From Brachionus manjavacas (Eukaryota; Rotifera; Eurotatoria; Ploima; Brachionidae): a stretch of 64,000 bases of DNA. Both the position numbers and the translations under genes were made by a program. Under the pieces are notes generated by a model that saw only the letters and a list, made by a program, of their open reading frames with translations, was not told the DNA's origin and made no database searches. Below, one piece after another: positions 3,457 through 62,399 of the stretch (position 1 is the first letter of the stretch; each line of letters begins with the position of its first letter). The DNA is taken from the NCBI GenBank assembly GCA_019054805.1, contig JAHQIY010000002.1, positions 8,680,001-8,744,000 of the forward strand. Direction: 5' to 3'.

Positions 3457-4532
3457 AAGTAAAGTTCACGAAATTCAAAACTTTAGTGCTATCTGAATTT
3501 CACATTTTTGACTCAAAATTCGTAATCTACGCCCTCAAAAACCCCAAAAAATAAATTTTTTTGAAGGGGGCAAAAAAAAAATTTTTTACACCAGGGTTCC
3601 AAAAATAGCAAACCCTTTAAAAAGTTGTTGTTCTTTAAGACTCAAAATATCAAAGATAAAACTTAAAAATACTAAAAAAGTATATATATTCTGAAAGAGC
3701 ATAAAATTCTCTACATGCTAATGTAATTTAGAAAAAAATAAAAGGGTGTGGCGGTTTTTGTTAGCTAAAAAAAGGAAAAAAATGTGTTTTTTCTGGTTTT
3801 ACCCTTTTATTTTATTGCTTTATTTTTCTTAAAAAATCTCTTCAAATCATGTGATAATTAACAAATTTGTATATTAATATTCTATTAATATTTTTTTTTC
3901 TAAATTTTACTAAAAACTTATCTAAAGATAAATAAAATTTAGTGAAAAATGCCTTAAAAATCAAAATACAATCAATCTCGTGTTAGTCACCTCGGAGTTT
4001 TCGGCCAAACAAAATTTAATGAAGAGGAAGAAAATGAAGATGATCATATGGAATTAGACGTTGAACCCGATATAAATAATAATTACCATGATTTTTTTAC
4101 TTCATCCGAATCTGAAGAATCCTATAGAAGGTATTTGGTGTTATTTAAAACAGCATATTAGAGAAAGAACAAATCAGACATTTCCAAGAATGATGGAGCT
4201 TTAAGCCGAAGCAAAAGAAAAGTATTTGGGTTCTGAGCTTTCAAAAAAATTAATCGACGATTTTGGCGGTGTTTAGTAGATTACAATAGTGGTGCGACGT
4301 ACGGTCAAGTACTAAAAGCATATTTTTCAGGAAAATCGAAAAAAACAGTAGTTGAGCACCTAAAAATATCGATTTCTTTAGTTTAATCTAAAAATTTTAA
4401 TAAAATAATTCAAATTTGACAAATTCAAAAAAATTTATTTTTTGGGGTTTTTGAGGGCGTAGATTACGAATTTTTAGTCAAAAATGTGAAATTCAGATAG
4501 CACTAAAGTTTTGAATTTCGTGAACTTTACTT
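3457..4532. mobile_element. DNA transposon remnant with ~109-bp terminal inverted repeats
   Basis: Positions 3457-3565 and about 4424-4532 are long inverted repeats beginning AAGTAAAGTTCACGAAATTC and containing TCTACGCCCTCAAAAACCCC. The interior has a decayed plus-strand frame near 3960-4380. It starts with a region reading SVSHLGVFGQTKFNEEEENE, continues very acidic (DDHMELDVEP, SSESEES), and after stops and shifts has YNSGATYGQVLKAYFSGKSKK. This could be the acidic N-terminus of a transposase or accessory protein. The superfamily is not determined; I could not define a target-site duplication. The repeats are highly conserved between the two ends, so the insertion may not be very old although the coding part is broken. 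Confidence 0.6.
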
Positions 4533-4552
4533 TAAAATCGAAACCTCAAATG

Positions 4553-32200: not shown

Positions 32201-35200
32201 TTTATTTTTTACCTCAATCAAGATTAGTTGGCAACGTTTTGATCATATGATCAAAACTAAACAGATTAAAATCATTATAGAAATGATGAAAAAATCTTTT
32301 AATTCTTCATGGCTTTAAATAGAATTTAAATAAATTAAAAAATATTAGAGCGAAACAAAGTTTAATTTTGTATTGCAAAATTTTAAAATATTGATTTAGA
32401 TCTTATTTTACTTCAGATAAAAATCCATATGATCTTCTTCTTAATTAAATATTAAATAAATCATGTTTAATAAAGTTTGAAAATTCAATATTTAAAAAAT
32501 TGATAAAAAACACCTTTTTTTTTAAATAAAATAACAAAAAATTCTGATTTAAAATTTACATTTGATCATAAACTTTAATTTGCCAAATTAGTTGTGTGAA
32601 AACAACATGCATGGTCTCGCATGCCTAATGTTTATGTGTTGTAAAATCACATTACAAAACTGATTTTACGTTAATTAATTTTTTAGATTATTTATTACTT
32701 ATAAATTAAAAATAATTTATTCCTCATATAATTCTACTAAAATTAGCACATAATTGAAGAATTTTTTTTTGTTTTACGGCAAAATTTGTAATTTTACATA
32801 AATTTACGTAAATAAAAGACAAGTGTCGTAGCAATACTGTACATAGTTGTGGGATACTCCAGAGGCAACTACTGCACATAAATATAACAATGTTTTACCC
32901 GTTGCTTCACTGCCGCTATAATTCTGATAATTTTTATGCTTTATTGAAAAATTCTTATTAAAAATTGATATTAAAAAATTTAAATCATTAAATTAAATGT
33001 CTGTATAAACACCATTTCTTGAAAGAAAAACTCAATTGATTTTTTTTTTCTACAGTTTTTTTGATTATTATTATTTATTTCAGTGAACGCCTTTAAGGCG
33101 ATGTTAAAAAATATTAAAAAAGAACAAATGAGATAAACAGTTTTAAAGAGATTAAAGATAAATATTTGAAATCATACTAAATGATTATTGTAAAAAATGT
33201 TAATTAAACTAGTTTGGTTAAATATTATTCAAAATTTCTTTTATTTATTTTTTTCTTCGATCCAGGAGGCAGAGTAACAAATCAAACTTTGGAGGACAAC
33301 CAGTTCACCGATGGATTTTCTTTCTTTTCTTAATACTTTTTATGATGATTTCTGTATTAATTTTATTTTTAGATTAGTGTTGGGGGCCGGTCGAGAGGCC
33401 ATGTGGCCGGCCAGAAAAAAAAATTGGCCGAGACCGTGGCCAGCAGTGCAGGCGGCCAAATAAAAAACCGACCGTGAAGTGGCCGGCCAACTGAAAGGCC
33501 GTTAAACGGCCGACCGTGTGCAGACCGGCCGGCCACAAAACGGTCCAAAAAAAAAATTTTACGTAGATGATTAAAAAAATTTTAAGACATTAAAATTTGC
33601 ATTTATTATTTATCAAATATTCTGAAGAAGGTAATTTTTAATTATTACCTCAAATTTTTAAAAAAATAACTAAAATTCCGAATACAAAAATAATATATAT
33701 AATTTAAGGATTTCTGAAAAATATCGGAAAAATTTGAGGTAATAATTAAAAATTACCTTCTTCAGAATATTTGATAAATAATAAATGCAAATTTTAATGT
33801 CTTAAAATTTTTTTAATCATCTACGTAAATTTTTTTTTTGGACCGTTTTGTGGCCGGCCGGTCTGCACACGGTCTTCTAAAATTTGGCCGTCCATTTCAC
33901 GGTCGGTCTGTCTGGTGGCCGGCCCTGAAAAGGTCGGCCTTTTTAAGAACGGTCCACAGACGGCCGGCCAATTCACGGACGGTCAAAAATGCGGCCTTTA
34001 AATTCACGGCCAAAATAGGCCGTTTATAGTGGCCGGCCAACTGGCCGTTCAAGTCCGGCCGTAGACCGGCCGGCATAAGTTGGCCGCCCCCCAACACTAT
34101 TTTAGATTGTTAAAAAATTTGTTTATACTATATGGAATATTGCAAATTGGATGTATAAAGCATTCATTATTTTTCAATCATGTAGTATTTTCCTTATCAG
34201 AACTCATGTGAACTCATGCTTAAATTAATTATAGAATTGTTAAATAAATATTACGTCTCAAATTTTTACTACTAATAAAATAAAATTAAAACCTTTTGCA
34301 AATAAAACAAACTATCTATTTGATGATCTGCTACTAAAAAAATATATCTTTTCAGCCCTCTTATTTGTAAATTTTTGATTAAATATAGAAAAGATTAATT
34401 AAATAAATTCTTTTCTTTTTCTTTTTATTAAAAAAGCAGGTATTTTCCATTTACCTGCTTTTTTAATAAGAAACTTGTTTAGGATGTTTTTGAATTAAAA
34501 ATTTAGAAAATTTTAAAAACACTATAATTAAATATTAAAGTTAGTATTTGTAAGTATATGTATGAGATTTTACTTTTTTCGCACATCTGAATTTTTAATA
34601 TTAAGAAATCTTAAAGACTTTTTACAAAGCTTTTAAGTCAAGCGCAAGCGAAGATGCCAAAAAAAAAGCTTTACTTGGTCGCCTCAGGACAGGCATTATA
34701 CCGAAAATCCAAAAAAAAAATAATTTTAAGCATAGTTTTTGCTATCTTATAAAATCAAGTAAAATCATTTGACATGTCTATCTTTCAAAAGTAAATTCGA
34801 TTTTTTTCAAAATTTTTCTCAATTTTTCTCCTTTTTTTTTTATTTTTTTTCTCAAAAAGTCTCAAAATCAAAAATAAAATTTAACTTTTAAAATGATATA
34901 AAATTTAAAATGACTTACTGATTTTTTAGCTGCTATACAATATTCCAAAGGCATGCCTCTGAGCTTTTGCTTGATCACACATCCACCAATGTTCGTATTG
35001 TAATTGGTGTAGTTGTCGAACGACTGACTACTCACATCGGTCAATTCAAATTTATCACTTGATGAGCCAGCTTGCCAAGTGAACATCAACGACAGCTCGA
35101 TGTCCTCGGCGTTCCTGTTGTCCACAGTCCAATTGAACAAAGTAACTGGAAGTGATGAGTCCTTGTAGTTGTGTGGTATTACAGGACTAATTTGGTGACA

Positions 35201-35770
35201 TGTCAAGCGGACATGCTGACCGGGCAAATTGTACACAGTCCACGATTCTGGATACAAAGCGTAATAGGTTGCGTTGTCGCCACAAAAAGCCATGTTCCAG
35301 CTCTTAAACCCGTTCTGCTTTATTCTCTTGGTGCACAAGGCTTGCTGGTAAACGGTGTGCTTTTTTTTCCTCAAGCAAACAGTGAACATGTTGGCCTCGC
35401 ATGTCTCGTGTTCATAGATGCCCGGCACCAACTGGTACCGGGTAAATTCTCCTGTGAACGATCGGCCAATAGTGCCCGTGCCAATTCCACCCATTGGCAC
35501 TCCATATATCTGCTTTACTTTAATAGGATCAAAAAAGTCCATGTGTGGCTGAACATTCTTCTTTTTACACTCTCGATGATACTTCATGTATCTTTATAGA
35601 CAAAAATATATATTTTTTTATTTATTTTTTTTTGTAATAAAATACCTTATCGATAAAGGAATAAAAGCAATGGCCTGTTTTATCCTAGGCATCACGAATG
35701 CTTGAAGCTTTATGTCATACTCATAGCTAAGCTTAAGCGTCCAACAATACTCTTCCAGATGCTTCTTCAT
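26286..35770 (-). CDS. Non-lysosomal glucosylceramidase (GBA2-like, GH116), copy A
   Basis: Seven exons on the minus strand: 35770-35646, 35591-34919, 30616-30508, 30480-30306, 30247-29251, 29200-29009 and 26471-26286. All have GT/AG borders and matching phases and sum to 2457 nt (818 codons plus stop), close to vertebrate GBA2. The family hydrolyses glucosylceramide to glucose and ceramide at cytosolic membrane faces. The N-terminal beta domain shows IYGVPMGGIGTGTIGRSFTG and RYQLVPGIYE. The catalytic (alpha/alpha)6 domain shows YGRFAYLEGQEYRMYNTYDV, DWKDLNLKF, DHDGDGLIDSEGLPDQTYD and LGLAFQTPEA. Glu452 and Asp602 match the family nucleophile and acid/base, and their 150-residue spacing equals that in human GBA2 (E527, D677). 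The start is the only Met upstream of the conserved region; a splice-acceptor-like AAG directly precedes it, so an upstream exon or trans-spliced leader is possible. Intron 2 (4.3 kb) and intron 6 (2.5 kb) carry transposons. Confidence 0.9.
27675..28620. repeat. Foldback element, ~240-bp arms, in intron 6 of copy A
   Basis: The left arm (about 27675-27915) and right arm (about 28385-28620) are inverted copies. Shared words include CAACAGAAAAGGAAA, AAATTTCCAAAATTTCTCGA and AAATTATGAAAATTAATATT. Just outside the left arm are TTTACGTAAA-type words, including ATATTTTACGTAAATTATGG, linking it to the element at 37669-39470. Nothing coding was found in the 470-bp centre; the frames within the arms are low-complexity. 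Confidence 0.6.
28640..28800. repeat. AAGTC-rich repeat fragment
   Basis: Clustered CAAGTC/GACTTG words and a right end TACAAGTCTG match the end structure of the MITE at 56283-56523. The left terminus is not clear, so this is likely a partial or decayed copy. Confidence 0.35.
29229..29710 (-). repeat. Near-identical patch shared with 44940-45419
   Basis: This ~480-bp segment of exon 5 of copy A (with a few bases of intron 5) differs from the corresponding part of copy B at only about four positions that I can see. Sequence on the exon side (29711 onward) immediately drops to clearly divergent paralogous sequence. It encodes the catalytic-domain stretch from DWKDLNLKFILTVYRDYFYL to FENE, including the acid/base Asp. 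Confidence 0.8.
30620..33366. other. Intron 2 of copy A, proximal part
   Basis: AT-rich intron sequence. A 165-bp inverted repeat lies at 31219-31383. Around 31800-31890 are AAGTC words of the MITE family. Near 32760-32850 an ACGTAAATTTATG-rich piece ends in GTGTCGTAGCAATACTGTA. Its reverse complement resembles the sequence at 27567 (TACAGTGCTGCTACGATACC), so these may be two ends of one TTTACGTAAA-type family. No coding exon was seen between 30617 and 34918. Confidence 0.5.
31219..31383. repeat. Short palindromic hairpin element
   Basis: AAGCTTATATTTTTTGTAGT followed by AGAAAAAAT pairs with ATTTTTTCTACTACAAGAAA followed by TATAAGCCTT. The arms are about 35-40 bp with an A/T-rich centre. It may be a MITE; no target duplication was determined. 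Confidence 0.45.
33375..34099. mobile_element. GGCC-rich palindromic hAT-type element with 8-bp TSD
   Basis: Terminal inverted repeats TAGTGTTGGGGGCCGG (left) and GGCCGCCCCCCAACACTA (right) are flanked by a perfect 8-bp direct repeat TTTTAGAT (33367-33374 and 34100-34107), the hAT hallmark. The centre (about 33540-33850) is an almost perfect palindrome with arms of ~120 bp around AATATTCTGAAGAAGGTAA. The outer parts are studded with GGCCGGCC/CGGCCG words, making local GC far above the surroundings. No transposase is present: the two frames over 33838-34097 are by-products of the GC repeats. It lies in intron 2 of GBA2-like copy A. Confidence 0.9.
34427..34467. repeat. Perfect 16-bp hairpin in intron 2 of copy A
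   Basis: ATTAAAAAAGCAGGTA and TACCTGCTTTTTTAAT flank a 9-nt loop. It sits just outside the patch shared with copy B and appears to be absent at the equivalent place in copy B (around 50170). Function unknown. Confidence 0.45.
34480..35510 (-). repeat. Near-identical ~1.03-kb patch shared with 50186-51207
   Basis: It covers most of exon 2 of copy A plus about 430 bp of intron 2. Intron sequence is as conserved as exon sequence. I count only a handful of substitutions (for example one changing Thr to Ser and one changing Cys to Trp) plus homopolymer length changes. Beyond 35510 the exon abruptly becomes divergent. Confidence 0.85.
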
Positions 35771-35978
35771 CTTAAATTAAAACTTAAAAAAATTTTTTCA
35801 AAATTTATTTAAAAAAATAAAAATTCGTGGCTATTTAGGGAATTAGAATTTTATTTCTAATAATATTACCAATCGGCTTAAATGACTAAAAATTCAAATT
35901 CAAATTCAAATTAATTAACATTTCTAAAAACTAAATTTTTTTATTAAAGTCTAAAAATTGTCTAAAAATGTCAATAGA
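35771..35978. other. 208-bp spacer between the tandem GBA2-like genes
   Basis: It lies between the stop of copy B (35979) and the start of copy A (35770), both on the minus strand. It contains a minus-strand AATAAA (35940-35945), probably the poly(A) signal of copy B, and a short ATTCAAATTCAA repeat. There is little room for a promoter and a 5' UTR for copy A. Confidence 0.5.
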
Positions 35979-38900
35979 TCAAGTTCTATTTTCAAGCGCA
36001 TACTGCACCGCCCAGATTGAAAGCGGCCTCATGTAGCCTAGACTCCGGTACTCGTTTTTCTTGTTCAGCGCTTCGGGAGTTTGGAATGCAAGACCTAGTT
36101 CGTAGTAGAGCGATTTGTACAATTCATCTAGTGTTGACCAGGCCATTTGGTGCAAATTTTCAAAAATTAACAACGACACAAATGAATTGGTCACTCCGAT
36201 CCACATCTCTTCGGATTGAATACTTGTTTTGTCCACAGAGCCGTCCGGACGCATGCCATTCACTGCTCCGCGCTTTCCTTTCTCAAACATAGCAACATTA
36301 TGCGCATAAATCGACTCCAAACAACTTTGTATTTTCTCTTTGTCAAAAACCTTAAAAATTCAATAAACTATTAAATCTTTTTTTTTGAAAAAAAAACTCT
36401 ATTAAGTTACATAACTAGCAAGCTTATCAAAAACACATGATTTCAAACTAATTGAAAGTCTAAATAATTGCTTTTTTATTTTTGGCAAAAGATTGTCTTT
36501 TTTGTTTTGTAAAATAACTTAGACTTTGATTCAGTCTTGTTTATCTTAGAGTTTTAAATTGATAAATTAAATGTGCCAAGATAAATATTTTATTGAAATA
36601 AAAATTGTTGTTTCAGCATAGGCCTAATGTGAATGAATAATAATTACCTAGATATTTGTTAAAATAATTTCAACTTTTTAACAAAAGCATGTAGTTTAAC
36701 CAAAAGAAAAATTGAAATTATTGATCCTGCAAATTTAATGAGTGGAAAAATGAAATTTTCACTTTGAGTCATTTGAGAAAATTTTTAAATTGAAGAATTT
36801 TTTTGTCCTAATGATGAATGTTTTAATTAAAAAAAATTCATTACTTTTTTTATTTTGTGGTGTTTTTTTTTGCTAGTTCTAGTATCCTCGATTGGTTTGA
36901 CATGGAAATCAAATAAACTTAACATTTTTTTAACACTCTGAAAATTAAATCTTCATTGAAAACAAAATAGACAATTTAATGTCATCTTTTTTGGTCAGTC
37001 AAGATGAATATTGTTAGGAAACTAAATGATAAAAAAGTCAATTTGGTCTTTGTGATCAAGTATTTGCCAAAATTTGTAATACATTAACATTTTTCAGATC
37101 TAAGTTCTATCTAATTTATCAGAAAAAATTTCTGTATTTTAATTGAAAAAAATTTTACATAGATTCTTAAAATTAGATTAAATTTTATTTTTGAAAAAAA
37201 ATGAAATTTATGCATCTGGTAACGAACATATATAATCTAATAGAGTGGTGATTAAATAACATTTCTAGTCCCTATATTCTCATCAGAACACGCAATCCAC
37301 TCAGCAACAGCTTAATGCCACAATAAACAGCTATACTTAAAGTAAATTTTGAAAAATTTTATAAAAATGAAAAGAAATGAAATTTCACAGACAACTCTTT
37401 TTTAATGAAAAATATTTTTTTTAGATTTGGAATGATTTTGCCAAGCTTTTGAATAAAATTTTTGAATTTTTGTAACTATCTCATGATGGTATAAATTTTT
37501 TCATTTTTAAGGGAAAAAATTTGAGAATTTCGTTCAAGGTTTAGCAAAATCATTTCTCAAAAAGGTAATTTATAAAATATTTACGAAAATTTTTTTTATT
37601 TTTTATCTTTCTGAATTTAAATTTAAATCTGTTAGAAAAAAATTAACTGAACTTTTTAGGTAAATATTGTAAAGTGGTGTTCCGGATTTAGTAATTTACG
37701 ATAATTTACGTAAAAAATAGTAAATTTACCGATTTTTACGTAAAATTTGGTAAATTTCGATCATTTTACGTAAATTTATGTAAAAAAAAAATGTCCAAAA
37801 AATTGAAATAATTTGGCACTTTTTAAAAAAAAATGAATTTTTTTATCCTTCTATATTTATAATCAAAATTATAAAAAAAAAAAATTTAGCATAATTTACG
37901 TAAATTTTGGTAAAATGTAATCAATTTAATGGTAAAAAATAGTAAAAAATTGTAAAATGTCAAAATTACATTCAACATTTAAAAAAGGTTAAAATTGAAA
38001 ATTTAAAATAAAATTTAAATAATTAAAATAAAATCGAGATGGTTAAATTTTTTGTGTTTGAATTACAAAATGTATCCTATGTTGAAACAGCATTGAAAAA
38101 GTCCGATGTTTCAAATATTTTTTTAGTTTCAAAAAAAAAAAATTTAAGTTAATATTGCAAACATTTTCATATTTGAAATTAAATTTTTTGGTGAAATAGA
38201 ATGAGTTGAATTTTTGTTTGAGAATTAGAAAAAATATTGAAAATTCTTTTTTAACTTTTAAGCAATTCATTTATTTATTTTTTACCGAGCAAATGCTCCT
38301 TCAGAATAAAAACATATTAAAAAACTAAAAATAAAGTTAAATAATATAAAATAAAAAAAAATGAATAAAAAAAAAGATAAATAATTCACTTAGATAAAAG
38401 TTTATATTCAGTCGTTAAAAACTGGGTCTTGTCGGTTAGGTGAATCACTTATTATCCGAAAAATTCTTGTTCCCAGATTTTGTGAGCTCCAATTTGGTTC
38501 ATCCAATTTTTTTGTTCAAAATAGAATTAAAAGTGAACCAAAATAGAATAAGACGAATAATTTTTAGATTATGTGAAAAAATTGAATAAAGCTGTTTAAT
38601 AGAATGCCTAATTCTCGAAACTGATGTAAAAATTAGTTAATAGTTTTTTAGGTTTTTTTTATTTAAGAAGGAGCTTTAGAAATAGCTTAGAATTTGATCT
38701 GATCTTTTTGACCTGGTATTACTCTTTCAACAATTTCAAATACCCAAATGCGCTCTCTCCTTAAATCTTTGCCTTTCAGCACAAAATGTAAAAAAAAAAT
38801 TAATATTAATATTAATTTAAAGAAAATTAAAATTAATTTTTCACCCTTTAAGTGTTTGACTTTGGCGAACAAAGATTCATCTATTTCGCAAAATTTACCT

Positions 38901-41900
38901 ACTCCACCAAACATTAAATTTTCTATGTAATTATTTTTTCTATCTTATTTTTTATCATTACATTAGACTTTTTCTAAATAGATGAAGAAATTTCAAAATA
39001 GGTGAACAATTTTAGATTAGGTCAAACACAAAAAATTTAAGTAATAGAAGATCAATGAGGTCGGTCAAACAATTAAAAAGCTTTAAAACTATTTAAAATA
39101 TTTTTTTAAACGTAAAAAATGTAAATAAATTTTTTTTTTAAATTAATTAAAAATTCTAACTAATCATTTTTTACAATTTTTTACTATTTTTTGATTTAAA
39201 TTTTTTACATTAAATTGATTACATTTTACCAAAATTTACGTAAATCATGCTAAATTTTTTTTTTTTATAATTTTGATTATAAATATAGAAGGATAAAAAA
39301 ATTCATTTTTTTTTAAAAAGTGCCAAATTATTTCAATTTTTTGGACATTTTTTTTTTACATAAATTTACGTAAAATGATCGAAATTTACCAAATTTTACG
39401 TAAAAATCGGTAAATTTACTATTTTTTACGTAAATTATCGTAAATTACTAAATCCGGAACACCACTTTACAATATTGTACCACTGTACTTTTGTAAATTT
39501 ACGTAAATTTACAATATTTTACATTAAAATCGGTAAATTTACTAATTTTTACGTAAATAATTTATTTTACGAGATCTTTCCGCTTAAAATTTTTCTGAAG
39601 AAGAATTTCTTTTCATCAGCTAATTTTTTACAATAAAATTATTTTTTTCACCAGAAAAATATTTTTTTAAACAAATAAACCCAAAAATATGAAGTATAAA
39701 CAGGCAAAAAGATTCTAATTATTTTTTGGTCTAATCTTCTCTTTTTTTTTCTTGCTGGTTGGTAAGTTTGATTTTCTGTTGTTTATCAATTCATCATGAT
39801 TGATTTTCGAAGTGTCAAAGTAAAACAAAAAATTCAAATAAATAGGCTTAATATTATTTTTCAGAATAAACCACATCTTTTAGCTTAATAACGGATTGTG
39901 GGTGAAATTTGTTATAATTTAAATACTTAAGATTTGAATAACTAAAAAATTGCTCGACTTTTTTTATTTTTTTTTATTTTACAGAAAAGTTCAACCTTCA
40001 TTCTTTCACGTAAGGTTCCTTCTATTAAAAACATAATAACATCATAACAAAAAAAGAAAAAATTGCCTTCTTCTCATCTGTTTTTAGTTCACTTTTATTA
40101 GAAATTTTTAAATTTATAATTAAATTAATTTGAAAGAAAATATTAGCCACAAATAGATCGAGTGAAATTGGTAAAATTAATTTAACACTAAAAAAATTTA
40201 TTTGAATTTAAACCTTAATGTGAAACAGAAAGGGTTTAATTTTTATTTAATATATTGAAAATTCTTTTTTAAACTTTAACAAAAACAAAATGTCGATCAC
40301 CACACTCGATCTCAGGCGCAAAAGAAACGATTTAATTCAATTTTTCAAGTCATTGAATGAGCTCGAGCGTATCGAGTGGTATCAAAGACGGTATCTTAAA
40401 TCAAGCGTCATTCAAGATGTTCCTGCGGCCTCAACAAGAGGCAACAAAAGGCGGGTCAGGTCACAAAGCTTCACTTCACGTGAAATCAACTACTTTCACT
40501 CGTCGGTCAGTACAAGAATGCACTTTTTTACTAATAGAGTATCCACGATTTGGAAAAAGCTGCCGGACAGTACAGAAAACGCTAGTAGTCTCAATATTTT
40601 CAAAGCAAGATTGGATTTTTGGCTTAGAGAAGAAAAGAATAGGAAAAAGCTTGGTTAATGGTGTTTCAAGAATTCAAAAATCATCACAAGATACATTGTT
40701 TTATTCATTTGTCTTTATATTATGGTATCTTATTTATTGGCTTTTGTATTTATATTTTTTTTATATTTCTATCCATGTGAACGGTTATTAAGGGCAGTCG
40801 AGAAAATTAGCTAAGAGGATAGATTCAAATGTTATGATGCCCAGGCTCAGAGGCGCATAACATTTCAGGTATTCAGGCTGCTACAGTTGACCGTTTTTTT
40901 TTGGGGCTCTGGCCCACGTTCCAGCTTGTGGGTTTCCACGCAGCAAAATTACTACTAATAATGCTACTAAATAACTCAAAAAATGAGCCTATTTAAATTT
41001 TGAATAAAAGACGAAGTTAATATATAAAAGTTTCTATTGAACCACAAGCTAAATCCGGTAGAAGGATAAGGCTAAGTCTTGTTTAGTAAAACAATTAAAT
41101 TAGGTAAAACTAAGTAATTTAGGCTATAAATTAAATAATTTTTGTTTTGATTTTTTTAATTCGGTTTTTTTTTTCAGTCAAACTTGACTAAATTAAGTAA
41201 AAATAAAATTAATAATTTTGTACGTCTTTTTTTGTATTTATAATTTTGTTCAATAAAAAAAAATTTATACGTAAATTAAGTAATTTGTACATTTTTTTAT
41301 TCGAGATTCTAAGTTAATTAACAGTACAGGTAATGTTTCTTCAAAAGATTTGATTAACTATTTAGAAAAAAATAAAATCATTAAAAATTATTAAAAATTT
41401 TTGCTTTTCAAGTAAAAGTGTATTTATTTTAAAGACTAGACGAATTTTAATTTTAGTAAATTTAAATAAAAACTTAACAACTTTTTAGGACTGGTTAATA
41501 TTTTACCACTGGTGATATTATTTACATGAATTGTCTTTGAAAGTAGATTTTTTGCTCAAAGAAAAAAATTTTTAATATCTGATTTAATTTTTTGTGTTCG
41601 AATTAAAAAATGTATCCAATATTGAAATAACATTGAAAAAGTGCGATGTTTCAGATATTTTTTTCAGTTTCAAAAAAAAAATAATTTTAAGTTAATATTG
41701 CAACCATGAAAAACTCTGTTTTTTTTTTTATAAATTTTGACTTTGGGTTTGTGATATGTTGATCCTTAAAGATAATATTAGTAATTTAAAAAACTTGCTA
41801 CGCTCTGTTTTCCATTTTTCATAAATTAAGTATTTGTTAAAATGCACCAAACGAAAGTAAATTATCCCTAAAGTCAAAATTTTATAAGAAGAAAACAAAG

Positions 41901-44900
41901 TTTTTCGGGTCTAGTAGCTTAAAACAACAACTATGGAAACTATGGTTCACCTGTTACTGTAATAATTCTTGTTCTCAGATTCTATGAAATATTATATATT
42001 AGTTGACCTGATCTAAAAATTGTTTACCTATTTTGAATTTTTTTTTATTTTTTTAGAAAAAAGCTAATTTGATGATAAAAAATTAGATAGAAAAAATAAT
42101 TACATAGAAAATTTAATTTAAATTTATTATTAAATGAAAAAATAAAAGAACCAATAGTTCACAAAACCAAAAACAATTGAATATAAACTTTAATCTGAAT
42201 GAATTATTTATCTTTTTTTTTCTTTTTATCCATTTTTTTTTATTTTATATTATTTAACCTTATTTTTCCATGGATAGACAATGAGATCAAACTTTTAAAA
42301 AATCAACTTCCTTTTTGTACTTTCTGTACTTTTAGTACTTTTTCTAATTAATTTATTTGGCCCTGTTCCTTTTTGTACTTTTGGTGATTAATAGTAATTT
42401 TAATCATTCTATTAAAACTTAAACGGGGTCCGGGGCGGAGCCCTGGTTTAGGGATTCGGGTATGCTGAAGGTAAGAAAAATATTAGTTAAATTTAAAATT
42501 TATATTTAAAATATTGATTAATAAAAGGTTTTTTTATTACCATTAAGAACAAAAAGTACAAAAAGGAACAGGGCCAAATAAAATAATATTCTGAAAAAGT
42601 ACAAAAAGTACAAAAAGTACAGAAAGGATTTTTACTTTTAAATATTTTCATTGTCTTTACCTCTATTTTTCCAAACAAAAATTAATCTCATTCTACTTCA
42701 CCAAAGAGTTTAATTTCAAATATGAAAATGCTTGCAATACTGACTTATAATTATTTTTTAATTTAAAACTGACAAAAATATTTGAAACATGGCATTTTTT
42801 CAATGTTACTTCAACATTGGATACATTTTGTAATTCAAACACAAAAAATTAAACCATCTCGATCTGCAATTTATTTTTTTTGATCAAAATAATGCTCCTT
42901 TTAAATGATTCCACAAGATTTTTGGATAATGAACAATATTAAATTGATCGATTTGAATGATAAAAATCCGCAAAATATTAATTGATACTAGATAAAATGA
43001 TGAATCTACTAGATAAAAAAGATTATTTTTACTATATAATGAATTTATTCACTAGATAAAAAAATTAGCTCCTATAAAAAAAAATTAATCAATATAAATT
43101 GAGAGAATTTACTATATAAAATAATTCATTGATATCAATTGAGATTAATTCATCCGATAAAATTGACACTAGATAATACAATTTTGAACTCGAGTTTTAA
43201 ATTAAATAATTAATTGACATTTAATTAGATTGATAATATAAATTGCTTTCTTAAATTACTTTGAATCTATATTTAACTAAAAATGACCCAAAATGAATCT
43301 TTTTCATCTTATAGTAGCGAGGATTCCGATTCAAGCACTGAGGCTACTACCACAGAGACTTACGAGATAGTACCAAGGGAAAATCTACAAGCAACGCTAC
43401 CTTGTACTTTTAATCAAGCTCAAGCAGATTTAGTTGAAAATCAAAATGCGCAAAGAAAAAAACGAGGGAAAAACAAAGATTATGAGCTCCAAATCGAGTG
43501 TCAAAGCCTTAAAGAAGCGATTGATTATATCAACCAACTAGACTCGGTTAAATGGACTCGATGTGATACAAGAAGAACAAATGAAGGAGAAAAACGCTTC
43601 TACAATTGCTTAAAAGAGTGTCCCAAAAGATTATATCTTTTGTTGACTGCCGATACCTTATGATTCTTATTATTCTCACGTCACGTCAATTTTATACATT
43701 GATTTCAATGAGGCAGATTGGAAAAATAGTCGTTGTAGTTGTCCGTATTGGCCTAAACATTATATTTGCAAACATGTTATTGCTCTTGCCGAGCGTCTAC
43801 TTTTGTTCGAGTTTCCTGCAAATGTAAAAGTAATTCCGATCGGTCAAAAAAGACAAGCAGGTAGACCAAAAAACACAGCAGAATGCTTAGACAAACAACC
43901 TGGTGAGCAAATAAGCGATTCAAGCGATGAAGACACTTACGAAGACTACTTTGACATACCAGTAAACCAGCAAGTTAACCAACGTGTAAATCGTACAAGC
44001 GAGATATTTGAAATGGAAGTTTTAGAGTCTCTTGAAAACATTAATTCCAAATCGCCAGATATTATCGAAACCAAACGTGGGCGTGGTAGACCGAAAAAGT
44101 GTGACGCGGGTTCTAATTCAAACAAAGTCGCGAGTCAAAAATCAACAGCTAAAAGAACATCTTCAAATAACAATGCCGACGAAAACGTGCAAGTAATTAA
44201 AAGTAAAAGAAGAAGAATTAATTAGTCTTAATTTAATTAAATTTTATTTGCTTTTTTTTTCATTTTTTTATCTTGTATTTTTATTTTTTATCTAATGAAA
44301 TATCTAAATAAATAGTCGTTTATCTTTTTATCTAAGGTTTTAATAAAATATCTAGTAATATTCATCTGTTTTATCTATTTTTTTATTATCTAGTAAAATT
44401 CATCATTTTAGCTAGTTCAATTAATTATATGCCATAAAAATCTCATGTTGAATTAATTAGTTCAAAATTAGATCAAATTGTTTTCACATAATTAACAAGA
44501 AATTTATTAGAACAAAAAATATTATCAATAGGTCAAAAAATTGGCTAGCTTCAACTTTTTTTTCCAAAGAGACTAAAACTGATTTTGTTTATCTAAGCTA
44601 TGCAAAAATTTTAAAAATTTCACAAATATTTATAATTAATTAAATGAATAAAAATTACATTACAGAGTAATTGCGGAAGCTAGTTTTAATTGGTAAAATT
44701 TATGGACCAATTTCGGTCTTTCTTTGGTTTGAAAAAAAATTTTTTTAATCAAATTATCTTTTTTAATTAGTCAAAATTATAAAATAAATAAACATTTTGC
44801 TCATTCATATATCTGTATTCTTTTAGTCCGAGTATGATAAATAATGTTATATGTTTGCAAAGTTTAATTTTTTTTTTTACATATTAAAATGCCAGAAAAA

Positions 44901-47900
44901 TCACCAATAATTAGTTGGTTTTAGGTCTGGCAAATTCTAAAAAATATAAAAAAAACTACCTCATTTTCAAATCCAGAGCACCTCAAATACCAATGGCCAC
45001 AGCACATGTCTGTCATAATGCTGTCATTGTAATCACTATTGCTGCAGTCGTATTTATAGTACTTTCCATTCCACAATTTTTTGTCATAAGCTTCTTTGGC
45101 TCTCTTCAATGTTGGCTCATATTTTTGCAAAGTTTCTCTGTCACCAAGTAGATTGGCTATTTTGCAGACACACGAAAGTGTAGCTACGTGCAGTCCACCG
45201 CAGTAGGCGCTGGCGCCAGTCACCGACCAGGCGTCATAGGTTTGATCAGGCAGGCCTTCGCTGTCAATCAAACCATCGCCGTCATGGTCCTGCGTTTGAA
45301 CCGTAATCATCAACAGCTTGATGTACGGCCACATGTACTCCAAATACTCGTGGTCTTTTAGATAGAAATAATCTCTGTAGACAGTGAGAATAAATTTTAG
45401 ATTCAAATCTTTCCAGTCTTTGGCGTCGTGGATCAGATAGGCATTCAGGTTGGTCCATGGCTGGTCATCGGGATCTCCGACATCATGCGGAACAGTTTTG
45501 AGCGTTTTGCGCCAGCCTTCTTTTCCATTGAACAAAAACACCCTATGTTCTTTGTCTTCGAAATTGATGGTCTCGGCAATGTGGTACTGTATGCTCAAGT
45601 GAAGATTTGGCCACAGCTGCAGCAAGGCAAAGTTGGCGTAAAAATGAACGTCATATGTGTTGTACATTCGGTATTCATGTCCTTCCAAATAGGCGAACAG
45701 GCCGTAGGTTTCAAAATGTTTGATGTCCGAACGGTCAGCATTAATCCACAAAGTACCGCCGTCAGACAAAAAGTACAATTCGTTGAAGAGGGCACATTTG
45801 TAAATATGTGAAGCGTTTCTACAATTTTTTTGTTTTTATTAATTATTAAAATTTTATGATTTTCTAAAAATTTAATTATAATTTACTCGTTTTTGAGTAT
45901 AGGACGTCTCCAGCCTAAAAGAGAATTTATCCAAGCATTTTTTTGGCTTAAAGAGTAGCATGACACATCAAAAAGTGAATTTGAATCATAGAAAAATTTT
46001 GTATAATATCTTTTATAGACTTTGTTTTGATTGCCGCCAAAAAACAAGTGAGGCATCCACCAAACCAGCGAAAAATCAATTGTTTCAGTTGACTCGGCTT
46101 TTAATTTGGCAGTGACACATACAGCCACTGTCAATTTGTTGGCTGACGAATGTCTCTTGGGTACCAGTGAAGCGTCGACTAATTGCAAAACAAGTTATTT
46201 TTATGCTCAATTAAAATTTGATAAGATATACATTCGGTATTATCTAATTGTCCATCTTCTAGCAAATCAGCCCAAAGACTTGTACCTAAGTTTTCGTCAT
46301 CTGTGTAAAATTGGCAATTGAATGTGACATGAGCGTTTTTCTATTACAAAAATAGAAAATTTTTCAAATTTTTTTATTATTATTGTAAATAAAATAATTT
46401 CATTTTTTTGTAAATGAATAATTTAAATTAGCTAAGAAAAAATTTATAAACAAAGCCACCCTAATCAATTTTTTCATCATTGAGAAAATGCTTTGAAAAT
46501 TTTGCTTGTTTGAAAAATATTTAAGAGCTTTTCAAAATTGTTCCCTCATTTAAATTGAGTTTAAAAAAATCTTTATAATTTAAAAATTAAAAATTATAGT
46601 TTTGAGTATAAAGCATATTTATGGCACAACCACGACTTTCGGGAACCATTTTTAAAGCTTACACTAACTTTGCCACAGTCGAAATAATACCAAAAAATTA
46701 CATTTTTCATATTCTATCCAAAAAGCACACTGACGCTGGCTTTCAGTAGCACAGCCAGGATTTTCTGGCGCATGGGGGGATTACAGCCTGTTTTAATGGG
46801 GACAAAAATTATAAAAATTATTTTATTGATGAAATATAAACAATTCAATAATTAATATTAATCGGATATAAATTTTTTAAAAGAATTTAATCTTCTATTT
46901 TTACTTTTAACAAAAATTTCTAAAATTTTATCAACATTTAAAAAATTGACTTCTTCTAATTCTATGCTTAAAATTGAGATTCTTTCCCTTAGATTATAAA
47001 GCATTAAAATAATAAAATAATACATTTAAACGCGATAATCAAGAGCTTTAAAATAAAAAAATGAAAATAAATTAAGATGAACTATTTCAAATTTTAAAAA
47101 AAGATCACAATACATGCAATTAAAAATAAAAAATATCCTCTTGACTTTTTTAATAACTAATTTTAAATCAAAGTATAATTATTTGTTCACTAGTTAAATT
47201 TGATTTTATTAAAAATTTTTTTTTTAGTCATAAGCTTATAGAAATAAATAACTCAAAACCATTTTGGCCTTTATTAAAAGGTTTTTTTTTCTAATAAATT
47301 ATTCGACAAATTTGTGGAAAGCAAATTAACCCACACACTTATCGTAAAAGAAACAGAAAAGTATCAAAAAAGCACAAATCAAAAATGGAAAACCCCTTTC
47401 GACCTATTTAAAGAAAAAATTCAAATAAAATAAACAATATTTTATGTTCTTACAATTTTCATTGTTCAAGCAATTTTTCAAGAATATTTAACTTAATTAA
47501 ATCAAAATTATTCAATTTTTTTGAATAACATTTACTTTTTGCTCTAATTTATGTGTTTTTTCAATTTCTTAAAAAACCAAAAATAACATCTACAAATCTC
47601 AAAATTAACGCTAACGTGGCTGAAAGTGAGAATTAATATTCATTCCAAACAGCCAAGGGATTTTGTTATTTTTTGATTTTGTTCCAAATTATAATTAGTT
47701 CTTTTGGACACATCTCAACATTTGAGTCTCCTGAACTGTTTATTAAAGATGGTCACAATTTTTTTTTACATTTTTTTGAAATGTAAAATATTATGATTCA
47801 AATTTAGTAATGTAAGAGATAAAGTAGACAATTATATGAAACAAGACATGACTGAGCTACCGATCTCTAACGAGACCGAGATGATTGTCAAAAAAGCCTT

Positions 47901-50900
47901 AAGCCTTAACATACCAATCCTGTACCATGCAATATATGTGGAGAATTTAAGAAGAATGAAAGAGGTGTTAAATTTCACATTAAAAAAAAGTAGGACTTTT
48001 TTTAATTATATTTTTTAGACTTTCGTTTCGATGTATTAGTTATTTGATCATATATTTTTTGATCAAAAAAATTTGTATTGGTAAGTTAGATCTTTACAAA
48101 TTGATTGATTATAATGAAAAAGATGATTTCCTGCCTAAAGATTCACTGATTATAAGAACTCCTTTTAATCGTAATATTTCAAATTTAAAAAGAATATTAG
48201 TGAATTCATGTGATCATTGTAAAAATCAAGAACAAAATTTATTAAGAAGAATTAGATTAAGATATATTTCAAATCTTTCTTTTAACTTGAAGTCTATTTT
48301 GATTCATGGTTTAAAAATTTAAAGCCTTCAATATTTATTTTAATGATGAATGTAAAATTATGAACTGTAAAATTTGTGCTTTCACTGAAAGAATTAAATT
48401 TTTAAATATGAAAGGGTTTTATTTACCAATTTTGTCAAACTAATTGTGAAAGTATTTATTCTTTTAAATAAACACATTAATGATTATAACCATTAATGTC
48501 ATAGTATACTATGAAATATCGAAAGAAGAAATAGAAAGAATTTTTAAAGGGTTGAAAAATAATAAAGGGGCAGGCTTTAACGATGTTACAAATGAAATGT
48601 ATAAATATGGCATGAGTGACACGCTAGTAATGGTTATCAAACTAATAATAGAAAAGATATCAAAATTGGACAAGTACCAAAATTTTTTATAAAGGGAAAA
48701 TAGTACCTATAAACAAAGACGAAAGTAAATCAAGTAATGATCTCGAAAATATTAGACCCATTACAGTGTCAGATGTTATCTCAAACATTTTCGAAAAAAT
48801 AATGCTAAACGAAATTATGAAAACACATGATGATCCTGATAAACAGTTTGGTTTTAAAAGAAATAGTTCTTGTTCACATGCAATATTCACTGTAAAGGAA
48901 ACAACTAGCTTTTATAAAAAGAGAAATAGAAGGATATATGGATGTGCAATCGATGCTAGTAAAGCATTCGACAAAATCAATAGAGACATCTTATTTAAAA
49001 AACTTATGGACAAAGTGTATCCACAGATATGGAGAAGCCTGAAAAAATATTATCTTAATTCAATGGCACTGGTAGTAAAAAAAGATGAAACAAGCAGGCT
49101 CTTAAGAACAACGATTGGCGTAAAACAAGGGGGTCCACTGTCCCCTAAGCTATTCTCAATATATACGGAAGACCTAGGCATAGAACTTGAGAAAAAAAAT
49201 ATTGGGACATTTCTTCTAACAGAGACCCTAAACGAATTACAACAAGCAATTAATATATGTGAGAAATATGGAATGCAACAGGAAATAAAATTTAATCCAG
49301 AAAAAACTCATATCATTATATTTGGAAAGAAACCAAAAGTAACTGATAAAAATATAAAACCGAAGATGTACAACCATGAAATTAAATGTGTCAATAAAAT
49401 TAAATATCTTGATGTAATTCTTAATGACAAAAACAGTAACAAAGACCAAATTGATACAAGAATAAAATCAGCCTTTAAATCATTTTATACATTAAAGAGC
49501 CTACAAATTGATAATATGTATCTAGCAACGAAAATTAAAATACACTTGTATAAGATGTTTATTAGACCAACACTTATCTATGGGTTTGAAAACTTCGTCC
49601 TTAGTAAAAATCAAACAAAGAAATTACAAACAACTGAGGCTACAATGATTAAGAAGAAATATTTAATGTTTGAAATGTAAAGATTTTTATTTTATTGTTC
49701 AAACTAAATATATTATATTTATTATTTTTTCAATTTTTCTTTGAATATTCTAAAGATTAATTAATTAATTTATTGAATTCTATTTTAATTTTAATTATTC
49801 AAATTTTAGCCTGGAGAAGAGACGCAGGTCTACCAAACCGGTCGTGATTTTATTTTAAACAATAAATAAATCATCGTTAATAAGAATTTTTTTTTTTTGA
49901 TCTTTTTAATTTTTTTTTTCTAAAGACGCAATAATTAAACTTTCATGACATGGATTTATTTTGTTCAAAACAATCCAAAGGATGTAACAATTTTTTTAAA
50001 ATCAAAAAAATTTAAAAGTCTCTAATAATAAAATTGAAAAAAAGTTAAAAAAATTTCATTATAAGGTTTTACCTTTTTTTTTGTTGAAAAATTAGGAGTT
50101 GGACTCAAGGGCAGTTTCGAGCGGTTTAATCCCTCTTTTCAGCTCTCTTATTAGGAAATTTTTGAATAAAAAAGTGACGATGTTTTTGGATTAAAAATTT
50201 AGAAAATTTTAAAAACACTATATTTAAATATTAAAGTTAGTATTTGTAAGTATATGTATGAGATTTTACTTTTTTCGCACATCTGAATTTTTAATATTAA
50301 GAAATCTTAAAGACTTTTTACAAAGCTTTTAAGTCAAGCGCAAGCGAAGATGCCAAAAAAAAAGCTTTACTTGGTCGCCTCAGGACAGGCATTATACCGA
50401 AAATCCAAAAAAAAAAAAAATTTTAAGCATAGTTTTTGCTATCTTATAAAATCAAGTAAAATCATTTGACATATCTATCTTTCAAAAGTAAATTCGATTT
50501 TTTTCAAAATTTTTCTCAATTTTTCTCCTTTTTTTTTTATTTTTTTTCTCAAAAAGTCTCAAAATCAAAAATAAAATTTAACTTTTAAAATGATATAAAA
50601 TTTAAAATGACTTACTGATTTTTTAGCTGCTATACAATATTCCAAAGGCATGCCTCTGAGCTTTTGCTTGATCACACATCCACCAATGTTCGTATTGTAA
50701 TTGGTGTAGTTGTCGAACGACTGACTACTCACATCGGACAATTCAAATTTATCACTTGATGAGCCAGCTTGCCAAGTGAACATCAACGACAGCTCGATGT
50801 CCTCGGCGTTCCTGTTGTCCACAGTCCAATTGAACAAAGTAACTGGAAGTGATGAGTCCTTGTAGTTGTGTGGTATTACAGGACTAATTTGGTGACATGT

Positions 50901-51468
50901 CAAGCGGACATGCTGACCGGGCAAATTGTACACAGTCCACGATTCTGGATACAAAGCGTAATAGGTTGCGTTGTCGCCACAAAAAGCCATGTTCCAGCTC
51001 TTAAACCCGTTCTGCTTTATTCTCTTGGTGCACAAGGCTTGCTGGTAAACGGTGTGCTTTTTTCCTCAACCAAACAGTGAACATGTTGGCCTCGCATGTC
51101 TCGTGTTCATAGATGCCCGGCACCAACTGGTACCGGGTAAATTCTCCTGTGAACGATCGGCCAATAGTGCCCGTGCCAATTCCACCCATTGGCACTCCAT
51201 ATATTTGCTTTGCCTTAACTGGAGAAAAAAAGTCTATGAAAGGTATTTTGTTGTGACTGGTTACGCTTTTCTCGTATTTTTTGCTTCTGTACGCCAGAGC
51301 CAAAAGTTTTAGTATTTGTCTAAATCTCGGTTTTGAGAATGCATTTATTTTTACCGGAAATTTTTTTGACAATTTCAATTCAAGACAAAATTCTTTGTAC
51401 TCTTGCTCGAATATTTTTAGGCTGTCACCATCTAGCTCGTCGTTTACAATCATTTCAGCTTTTAACAT
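35979..51468 (-). CDS. Non-lysosomal glucosylceramidase (GBA2-like, GH116), copy B, frameshifted
   Basis: Five exons on the minus strand: 51468-50616, 46340-46232, 46178-45887, 45818-44960 and 36350-35979. Borders are GT/AG and phases agree except inside exon 1. Exon 1 has 853 nt, one more than a multiple of three, because the A-run after FTVWLRKK (near 51060) is 6 long, whereas copy A has 8 and stays in frame. The conserved blocks are present: IYGVPMGGIGTGTIGRSFTG, FNCQFYTDDENLG, CALFNELYFLSDGGTLW, FAYLEGHEYRMYNTYDV (nucleophile Glu), LPDQTYDAW (acid/base Asp) and LGLAFQTPEALNKKNEYRS. The N-terminus starts MLKAEMIVNDELDGDSLKIF. Compared with copy A, two introns are absent (after VYKR and after IFE) and one is new (after LKNE). 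The frameshift may be real pseudogenisation or a homopolymer assembly error. Intron 1 (4.3 kb) and intron 4 (8.6 kb) are loaded with retroelements and foldbacks. Confidence 0.85.
36360..37660. other. Intron 4 of copy B, AT-rich, nothing recognised
   Basis: No coding exon, repeat family member or RNA gene could be supported in this stretch. Confidence 0.45.
37669..39470. mobile_element. Large foldback element with ~300-bp arms and TTTACGTAAA words
   Basis: The left arm (37669-37960) and right arm (about 39175-39470) are nearly perfect inverted repeats, beginning GTAAAGTGGTGTTCCGGATT and containing many TTTACGTAAA palindromes. They are flanked by AATATT on both sides (37663-37668 and 39471-39476), a possible 6-bp target duplication. 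The ~1.2-kb centre holds other repeats (part of element X at 38033-38200 and a LINE-A 3' end on the minus strand at 38267-38400). No transposase gene was seen. The frames around 38687-38930 are not convincing. Confidence 0.7.
38033..39010 (-). repeat. Composite of element X and LINE-A 3' end, nested
   Basis: 38033-38200 matches 41578-41706 (same strand) and 42715-42866 (opposite strand). 38267-38310 has the LINE-A end signature on the minus strand (CTGAAGGAGC-ATTT-GCTCGGTA plus an A/T tail). 38390-38410 and 38920-39010 are reverse complements of 42175-42200 and 42010-42115. The segment is therefore an older copy of the repeat complex at 41.6-42.9 kb, sitting in the centre of the 37669-39470 foldback. 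Confidence 0.5.
40270..40980 (+). pseudogene. LINE C-terminal fragment with 3' UTR
   Basis: The frame 40290-40658 has the typical end of a CR1/Jockey-type polyprotein: LRRKRNDLIQFFKSLNELER, then a basic stretch and FFTNRVSTIWKKLPDSTENA followed by NIFKARLDFWL. No RT domain precedes it, so it is 5'-truncated. The GC-richer sequence to about 40980 is probably its 3' UTR. It lies in intron 4 of GBA2-like copy B, antisense to that gene. Confidence 0.75.
41573..42875. repeat. Element X: ~1.3-kb foldback repeat
   Basis: Arms of about 130-150 bp (41578-41706 and 42715-42866) are inverted copies. They share TTTTTTGTGTTYGAATTAMA, ATTGAAATAACATTGAAAAA and GTTAATATTGCAA. The interior shares blocks with 38390-39010 and includes a LINE-A-like 3' UTR segment (42175-42270). 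A separate palindromic insertion lies at 42310-42627. No coding capacity was seen. Confidence 0.55.
42310..42627. repeat. GTAC-rich palindromic element with GC-rich core hairpin
   Basis: The ends CCTTTTTGTACTTTCTGTAC and (reverse complement of the right end) CCTTTCTGTACTTTTTGTAC are inverted repeats of ~85 bp, both including GGCCCTGTTCCTTTTTGTAC. Near the middle is a GC-rich segment (42424-42460) with the stem-loop GGGTCCG-GGG-CGGAGCCC, exceptional in this AT-rich context. Probably a MITE; class not determined. Confidence 0.55.
42980..44422 (+). mobile_element. MULE-like element lacking the DDE core
   Basis: The ends AATTGATACTAGATAAAATG (left) and the reverse complement of the right end, AATTGAACTAGCTAAAATGA, are inverted repeats continuing into TGATGAAT...ACTAGATAA. 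Subterminal ACTAGATAAAA words recur many times (42985-43175; 44280-44400). The coding part (43283-44225) joins a FLYWCH-like N-terminus almost directly to a SWIM zinc finger. No clean 8-11 bp target duplication was found. Confidence 0.7.
43283..44225 (+). pseudogene. MULE-type transposase with FLYWCH and SWIM fingers only
   Basis: The frame from 43283 begins with an acidic/Ser-rich leader, then a FLYWCH/WRKY-like finger (SVKWTRCDTRRTNEGEKRFY, NCLKECPKRLYL). After a frameshift near 43660 it continues with a SWIM zinc finger, RCSCPYWPKHYICKHVIALA (CxC...CxH), IPIGQKRQAGRPKN, and a C-terminal tail with an AT-hook, RGRGRPKK, ending RRRIN at 44225. The ~200+ residue MULE catalytic domain normally between the two fingers is missing. 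It is either an internal-deletion derivative or a decayed copy. Confidence 0.7.
44940..45419 (-). repeat. Near-identical patch shared with 29229-29710
   Basis: This is the copy B counterpart, within exon 4 and its donor-side intron bases. See the copy A patch for the comparison. At 45420 identity collapses from about 99% to clearly divergent paralogous sequence. Confidence 0.8.
46345..47830. other. Intron 1 of copy B, distal part
   Basis: AT-rich, no exon recognised. Around 46745-46790 a GC-richer stretch reads CAGTAGCACAGCCAGGATTT, then CTGGCGCATGGGGGGATT. This resembles the end of some hAT-type or other DNA elements, but no partner end was found. Confidence 0.4.
47836..48330 (+). other. 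Two unassigned frames upstream of a LINE
   Basis: The frames 47836-48018 and 48044-48322 have ordinary, non-repetitive composition (PISNETEMIVKKALSLNIPI; FNRNISNLKRILVNSCDHCK). They could be degraded 5' parts of the retroelement that follows, or of another element. No motif identified. Confidence 0.2.
48480..49880 (+). pseudogene. LINE reverse transcriptase lacking the catalytic YADD box
   Basis: The first frame (48480-48692) has EEIERIFKGLKNNKGAGFND and VTNEMYKYG. After a frameshift near 48680 the frame continues NIRPITVSDVISNIFEKIML, KQFGFKRNSSCSHAIFTVKE, CAIDASKAFDKINRDILFKK and TTIGVKQGGPLSPKLFSIYT. After EKKNIGT the sequence goes straight to FLLTETLNELQQAI. The segment that should hold the second catalytic motif (YADD) is missing in frame. 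The thumb and C-terminus follow (EIKFNPEKTHIIIFG; IHLYKMFIRPTLIYGFENF) to the stop at 49680. A GC-richer block (49810-49850) and an AATAAATAAAT tail near 49860 look like the 3' end. Confidence 0.8.
50186..51207 (-). repeat. Near-identical ~1.03-kb patch shared with 34480-35510
   Basis: Copy B counterpart, comprising about 430 bp of intron 1 and ~590 bp of exon 1. The frameshifting A-run (6 instead of 8) near 51060 lies inside it. Confidence 0.85.
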
Positions 51469-62370: not shown

Positions 62371-62399
62371 TTCTTATGGAATTATGTGAATTTTGCTTT

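What the first reader, a model, noticed from the sequence alone, without database searches (positions are those of the whole stretch)
34480..51207. Patchwork near-identity between two old GBA2-like paralogs: ectopic gene conversion
Copies A and B are clearly divergent in most exons (for example the segment just before DWKDLNLKF) and differ in intron positions. Two patches break this: 34480-35510 against 50186-51207 (~1.03 kb, about 430 bp of it intron) and 29229-29710 against 44940-45419 (~0.48 kb). In both, only a handful of differences are visible and identity ends abruptly. Intron sequence as conserved as exon sequence rules out simple purifying selection. The pattern fits recent, short-tract gene conversion about 15 kb apart. 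The second patch covers the catalytic acid/base region.
Basis: partly seen in the sequence, partly recalled or inferred. Interest (0 to 1): 0.75.

Follow-up and report, generated by a model that had tools for sequence, protein, structure and literature searches.

The report
Gene conversion between two neighbouring genes
Two long-diverged neighbouring copies of an enzyme gene share two almost identical stretches, one running into an intron, best explained by DNA being copied from one gene into the other; this is a known process, seen here unusually clearly.

Summary
Observation confirmed. Two tandem minus-strand GH116 (GBA2-like) genes, A (35770-26286) and B (51468-35979), are saturated outside two patches: 59% nt identity, 57 of 78 fourfold sites different, longest identical coding run 14 bp. 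Inside, identity is 98.5-98.7% and 2 of 119 fourfold sites differ. Patch 1 (34480-35517 / 50177-51212) includes about 430 bp of intron; patch 2 (29231-29711 / 44940-45420) covers the catalytic acid/base. Permutation gave 0 of 10000. Silent and intron sites are homogenised too, and these parts are not specially conserved against a solved relative, so ectopic gene conversion is the best explanation.

New points: (i) beyond a 95-bp stretch of A (6 bp in B) holding a perfect 18-bp hairpin, intron homology resumes at 33/37, apparently an older layer. (ii) The diverged flanks make a fresh start of conversion hard, so the patches look like surviving homology islands, converted repeatedly and bounded by indels; a single recent episode remains the chief rival. 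(iii) B has one frameshift, inside patch 1. Donor, organism and age are undetermined; assembly error is unlikely but untested. A known kind of process; moderate-low interest.

The parts
26286..35770 (-). Copy A, GH116/GBA2-like gene, 7 modelled exons: 35770-35646, 35591-34919, 30616-30508, 30456-30306, 30247-29251, 29200-29009, 26471-26286; 810 aa, open throughout
   Evidence: GT/AG splice sites and open frame; Pfam PF12215 E=3.9e-88 and PF04685 E=3.5e-151; PDB 9wiz and TxGH116 entries
35979..51468 (-). Copy B, tandem paralog directly upstream of A, 5 modelled exons: 51468-50616, 46340-46232, 46178-45887, 45818-44960, 36350-35979; one frameshift in exon 1 inside patch 1
   Evidence: Splice sites and frame; Pfam hits of five separate open stretches of it (exon 46340-46232 not searched)
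34480..35517 (-). Conversion tract 1 in copy A (most of exon 2 plus about 430 bp of intron 2)
   Evidence: 1026 of 1039 columns identical to B 50177-51212
50177..51212 (-). Conversion tract 1 in copy B
29231..29711 (-). Conversion tract 2 in copy A (3' part of exon 5 and about 20 bp of intron 5); holds acid/base Asp594
   Evidence: 474 of 481 columns identical to B 44940-45420; Asp594 at 29526-29524
44940..45420 (-). Conversion tract 2 in copy B
34347..34383 (-). Outer residual-homology block in A intron 2, 33 of 37 identical to B 50134-50170
   Evidence: Local alignment score 54; best of 1000 random pairs 39; with up to 9 mismatches found at only these two places in the window
50134..50170 (-). 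Outer residual-homology block in B intron
34384..34478 (.). 95-bp stretch of A (6 bp in B: insertion in A or deletion in B) between tract 1 and the outer block; holds a perfect 18-bp-arm hairpin at 34425-34469
   Evidence: 34384-34480 folds as DNA at -22.1 kcal/mol, z -6.96
51058..51063 (-). Homopolymer in B exon 1 two bases shorter than in A: frameshift, the only reading-frame lesion seen in the B model
35771..35978 (-). 208-bp spacer between the B stop codon and the A start codon

Best explanation
A and B are old tandem GH116 (non-lysosomal glucosylceramidase-like) paralogs. Two segments have been homogenised by ectopic gene conversion: a break in one copy was repaired using the other as template, copying exon and adjoining intron. 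Most likely this happened more than once. The two segments stayed long and similar enough (about 1.0 and 0.48 kb) to go on recombining, while the rest diverged beyond use. Length differences at the intron ends and diverged codons at the exon ends now bound the islands. Shown: mosaic identity, silent and intron homogeneity, length differences at the intron edges, a more diverged homologous block outside tract 1. Inferred: break repair as the route, repeated rounds, enzyme function of the products. Not determined: donor and recipient. The confidence given is for gene conversion of either history; I put about 0.55 on repeated rounds and 0.3 on a single episode.
For: Fourfold sites 2 of 119 differing inside vs 57 of 78 outside; permutation 0 of 10000 for each of the two best runs. 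Within tract 1 the intron is as similar as the exon: interior substitutions 3 of 425 vs 2 of 589, P=0.65; with edge substitutions kept 5 of 439 vs 4 of 599, P=0.51. The patches are not the most conserved parts of the protein: A vs 9wiz identity 77/198 and 67/153 in patches, 95/253 middle, 56/121 3' end, 15/62 5' end. Direct tandem arrangement with a 208-bp spacer. For repeated rounds: longest identical coding run outside the tracts 14 bp, while a review gives more than 80% identity as the main range and about 200 bp as the yeast minimal segment (PMC3924818, passages); the outer block differs at 4 of 37 vs 9 of 1488 in tract interiors, P=1.8e-4, or vs 16 of 1516 with edges kept, P=0.001. The two tracts do not differ in divergence (5/1016 vs 4/472, P=0.48; 9/1035 vs 7/481 with edges, P=0.29), though the test has little power.
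Against: No related strain or species was available, so no phylogenetic test and no polarity. The same review says conversion can occur below 80% identity at a low rate, so a single event is not excluded. Third-position GC is raised in the patches (odds ratio 1.79 in A, 1.51 in B), as GC-biased conversion would give, but the intron part is not GC-rich (22% vs 24% in the rest of that intron). The outer block is only 37 bp, beside an indel, where substitutions can cluster. In the exon of tract 1, 3 of the 4 substitutions change the residue and B has a frameshift nearby, which could hint at errors in the B sequence. Assembly error is not formally excluded.
Confidence: 0.85

Rival explanations
1. 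One recent conversion episode (one event with a discontinuous tract, or two events close in time) between fully diverged paralogs, with no earlier rounds. This is still gene conversion and shares the 0.85 given above.
For: The tracts do not differ in divergence. Exon-side edges are sharp: 8-10 of 25 from the second 25-bp step past tract 1, 10-17 of 25 past tract 2. Conversion below 80% identity is reported as possible at a low rate (PMC3924818 passage).
Against: Needs pairing between genes 59% identical with no identical coding run above 14 bp outside the tracts; does not explain the 33/37 block beyond the indel, or the 19/25 step just past the exon edge of tract 1.
Confidence: 0.3
2. Assembly artefact: reads or contigs of one copy (or its other allele) placed into the other.
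For: A homopolymer frameshift and a nearby substitution in B are the kind of error assemblies make; 3 of 4 exon substitutions in tract 1 are replacements; tract divergence near 1% could be allelic; no reads could be examined.
Against: Four junctions would be needed, two of them in introns where the copies offer little to overlap on (at the tract 1 intron edge the outer block has no identical run above 10 bp). In the interior of tract 2, 3 of 4 substitutions are synonymous. Lower-identity homology lies just outside tract 1.
Confidence: 0.1
3. Strong purifying selection on two domains, the paralogs having diverged elsewhere.
For: Tract 2 holds the catalytic acid/base; both tracts lie in Pfam GH116 domains.
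Against: Silent sites and about 430 bp of intron are as conserved as replacement sites; the same regions are not exceptionally conserved against 9wiz; no Rfam family at gathering threshold in the window.
Confidence: 0.02
4. Recent partial duplication: a segment of one copy inserted into the other beside, not in place of, the homologous part.
For: Partial duplications are named as look-alikes of conversion in the Caenorhabditis review (PMC3966223, passages).
Against: TBLASTN of A against the window at E up to 10 found the modelled exons of A and B and three weak short hits (E 1.1, 7.6, 8.0), none a displaced exon; both segments sit at the homologous place.
Confidence: 0.02

Closest known systems
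GOT1p1/GOT1p2 paralogs of the copepod Tigriopus californicus (PMC3728101; abstract, one Results section)
   Same: Mosaic of high- and low-divergence regions between paralogs; predicted conversion overlaps mainly the low-divergence regions, which are not simply where the protein is conserved
   Different: There four populations and GENECONV support it and the sequenced p1/p2 region has no introns; here one sequence, saturated flanks, and intron in the tract
Caenorhabditis paralogs such as col-12/col-13 and the zim/him-8 cluster (review PMC3966223; passages)
   Same: Conversion between tandem paralogs including an intron, with diverged flanks; 'terminator mutations' such as large indels proposed to stop homogenisation
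   Different: The review links intron inclusion to compact introns; here tract 1 runs into a 4.3-kb intron and ends at a hairpin-bearing length difference
TxGH116 and 9wiz 'non-lysosomal glucosylceramidase' (GH116)
   Same: A aligns to 9wiz over residues 5-422 and 436-806 and to TxGH116 over 65-801; nucleophile and acid/base positions present
   Different: No biochemical evidence for A or B; B carries a frameshift

Membership tests
Interlocus (ectopic) gene conversion | Tracts of identity far above the divergence of flanking aligned sequence, at silent sites | tested here: met
   Permutation 0 of 10000; fourfold 2/119 vs 57/78
Interlocus (ectopic) gene conversion | Tract includes non-coding sequence or is otherwise not explained by constraint | tested here: met
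   About 430 bp of intron; no special conservation against 9wiz
Interlocus (ectopic) gene conversion | Phylogenetic conflict between tract and flank with an outgroup or related strains | not testable with these tools
   No whole genome held; no relative of A in IMG/VR; the GTDB collection (bacteria and archaea) was not scanned, as too distant to help
Interlocus (ectopic) gene conversion | Non-reciprocal transfer, with donor and recipient identified | not testable with these tools
   No relative close enough to polarise; GC3 gives no direction
GH116 / GBA2-like glucosylceramidase | Pfam N-terminal (PF12215) and catalytic (PF04685) domains | tested here: met
   A: 296 and 504 bits, far above cut-offs of 30.2 and 26.3; five separate stretches of B also match one or the other
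GH116 / GBA2-like glucosylceramidase | Catalytic nucleophile Glu and acid/base Asp (E441, D593 of TxGH116) | tested here: met
   A Glu444 and Asp594 by position in the phmmer alignment, counted by hand with an offset of 16 between chain and full numbering that I inferred because it fits both residues; residues named in PMC10167657 (passages); codons
GH116 / GBA2-like glucosylceramidase | Glucosylceramidase activity | not testable with these tools
   Needs an assay

The most novel reading that the evidence does not exclude
The two tracts are long-lived homology islands: repeated conversion has kept a 1-kb and a 0.5-kb segment, intron included, near-identical long after the rest of both genes became saturated. 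They are fenced by indels acting as conversion terminators, with a visible older layer (33/37) beyond the fence, and the A-only hairpin at the fence may be the break site or a scar of template switching.
Probability: 0.4. Interest if true: 0.45.

Novelty: new member of a known kind. Interest (0 to 1): 0.32.

Why it matters
Theory holds that conversion between duplicates stops once identity falls too low or an indel interrupts it. A pair with saturated flanks but two still-similar islands, and a possible older layer just beyond an indel, is a compact natural case for testing how conversion dies out along a gene. Practically, such mosaics mislead gene trees and the dating of duplicates, and conversion could repair or spread the frameshift now in B.

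Tried and rejected
Search of the window's own assembly: none held. Relatives of protein A in IMG/VR: 2 stretches matched a pattern, none confirmed. Rfam at gathering threshold and ARAGORN: nothing in the window, so no known structured RNA family explains the intron conservation. GC-biased conversion as a sign of repetition: coding third positions agree, the intron does not, so I do not rely on it. Donor direction from GC3 or from the B frameshift: not decidable. Displaced older exon: none found. Hairpin as break site: only a lead, noticed after the fact; the scan took perfect arms of at least 15, loops of 3-20 and at least three kinds of base in the arm. Rows dropped: the tract-interior counts leave out the substitutions at 34482, 34493, 35510, 35517, 29234, 29238 and 29711 as edges, and all indels; one search repeats the tests with those substitutions kept, and the conclusions stand. 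The codon counts leave out alignment gaps and the codon lost at the B frameshift. GBA2 with gene conversion and duplication gave 2 papers, neither on this by title; Brachionus with gene conversion and genome gave 22, and none of the 8 listed titles was on this gene. Organism: the low GC, the retroelement proteins and the gene content made me think of a rotifer (recalled, not tested).

Full report
OBSERVATION. The window is 64 kb at 26.9% GC. Self-comparison finds two A/B matches in the right places, and global alignments show the near-identical cores: tract 1, A 34480-35517 vs B 50177-51212, 1026 of 1039 columns identical; tract 2, A 29231-29711 vs B 44940-45420, 474 of 481.

GENES. Both copies are on the minus strand in tandem, B upstream of A, 208 bp from the B stop to the A start. 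A is modelled with 7 exons and an 810-residue open frame; B with 5 exons and one frameshift, a homopolymer two bases shorter than in A, inside tract 1. The models rest on splice signals and reading frame, not on transcripts. Three intron positions are shared (after A exons 2, 3 and 5) and the others are private to one copy, as read from the models and the protein alignment. A matches Pfam PF12215 and PF04685 strongly, and five separate stretches of B match one or the other. The best solved relative is 9wiz, 'non-lysosomal glucosylceramidase', followed by TxGH116 entries. E441 and D593 of TxGH116 are the nucleophile and acid/base (PMC10167657, passages seen). By position in the alignment they fall on A Glu444 (29976-29974, outside the tracts) and Asp594 (29526-29524, inside tract 2); those positions were counted by hand with an inferred numbering offset of 16.

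MORE THAN CHANCE. Of 802 aligned codons, 451 lie outside the tracts: nt identity 0.591, aa 0.528, third positions 0.381, 57 of 78 fourfold sites different, dS not computable (saturated) for the pooled set. In the 351 codons inside: 7 nt differences, 2 of 119 fourfold sites different, dS 0.019 (NG86). Shuffling codon order 10000 times never reached the observed best or second-best run, for all codons or for the 554 silent-informative ones. In 30-codon steps identity climbs from 37/90 to 83/90 and 89-90/90 in tract 1, falls to 60/90 and below, and climbs again to 88-90/90 in tract 2.

NOT SELECTION. Intron sites of tract 1 are as similar as exon sites: interior substitutions 3 of 425 vs 2 of 589, P=0.65; with edges kept, 5 of 439 vs 4 of 599, P=0.51. 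Against 9wiz the tracts are not special: 77/198 and 67/153 identical, vs 95/253 in the middle, 56/121 at the 3' end and 15/62 at the 5' end. No Rfam family reaches its gathering threshold anywhere in the window.

EDGES. On the exon sides identity falls within a few bases, though the first 25 bp past tract 1 still match at 19/25 before 8-10/25; past tract 2 it is 10-17/25. On the intron side of tract 1 homology does not simply end: beyond a 95-bp stretch of A (34384-34478; 6 bp in B), 37 bp (A 34347-34383, B 50134-50170) match at 33/37. The score is 54 against a best of 39 in 1000 random pairs, and this block occurs nowhere else in the window with up to 9 mismatches. It differs at 4/37 against 9/1488 in the tract interiors (P=1.8e-4) or 16/1516 with edges kept (P=0.001), so it looks like an older layer, with the caveat that it is short and beside an indel. 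The 95-bp stretch contains a perfect hairpin with 18-bp arms (34425-34469), one of 2 found in the window by a scan for perfect arms of 15 or more and loops of 3-20, the other being almost all A and T runs; 34384-34480 folds at -22.1 kcal/mol, z -6.96. The chance that one such hairpin lies within 50 bp of one of eight edges is about 1.3%, but this was noticed after the fact. At the intron side of tract 2, A's intron is 50 bp and B's about 8.6 kb, so this edge also meets a large length difference, some 25 bp into the intron.

MECHANISM. A review gives more than 80% identity as the range where conversion mainly occurs, adds that it can occur below that at a low rate, and cites about 200 bp as the yeast minimal segment (PMC3924818, passages seen). 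Here the flanks have 59% identity and no identical coding run above 14 bp. A first conversion between such copies is therefore hard to start; islands kept alive by earlier rounds are easier. The two tracts do not differ in divergence (5/1016 vs 4/472, P=0.48; 9/1035 vs 7/481, P=0.29), a weak test. I therefore favour repeated conversion of surviving islands (about 0.55), with length differences acting like the 'terminator mutations' discussed for Caenorhabditis (PMC3966223, passages seen); a single recent episode (about 0.3) is the chief rival. Results against or mixed: third-position GC is raised in the tracts (odds ratio 1.79 in A, 1.51 in B), as GC-biased conversion would give, but intron GC in the tract is not raised; in the exon of tract 1, 3 of 4 substitutions change the residue, beside the B frameshift.

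WHAT IS KNOWN. Mosaic paralogs shaped by conversion are known, for instance GOT1 in Tigriopus (PMC3728101, abstract and one section read) and tandem paralogs in Caenorhabditis with introns included (PMC3966223, passages). This is a new member of that kind. One search for GBA2, gene conversion and duplication listed 2 papers, neither on this by title.

LIMITS. One sequence, no reads, no relatives, organism unnamed. Donor, age and the truth of the B frameshift are open. A chimeric assembly is judged unlikely because four junctions would be needed, two in introns with little usable overlap, but it is not excluded.

Noticed in passing
33385-34098: GGCCGGCC-rich, largely palindromic element in intron 2 of copy A (83.6% self-complementary over 462 columns at 33467-33907; inner 112-nt arms 99% complementary), about 380 bp from tract 1. 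Outer limits are by eye.
   Followed up: partly
34425-34469: Perfect hairpin (18-bp arms, 9-nt loop) in the A-only stretch, about 10 bp from the edge of tract 1.
   Followed up: yes
48652-49680: Reverse transcriptase (RVT_1, E=6.6e-23) open frame on the + strand inside the 4.3-kb intron of copy B.
   Followed up: partly
43647-44225: Open frame on the + strand with a SWIM zinc finger (E=1.5e-6), inside the 8.6-kb last intron of copy B; transposon-like by my judgement.
   Followed up: partly
37659-37957 and 39179-39481: Inverted pair 96.7% identical, about 300-bp arms, in the last intron of B; possible transposon ends.
   Followed up: no
3451-3565 and 4424-4538: Inverted pair of 115 bp, 97.4% identical, about 860 bp apart; MITE-like.
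   Followed up: no
25548-26012: Open frame with a fibrinogen C-terminal domain (E=8.1e-26) on the + strand, about 270 bp beyond the end of copy A.
   Followed up: partly
61369-62373: Open frame on the - strand matching Pfam Sulfotransfer_2 (E=2.2e-7).
   Followed up: partly
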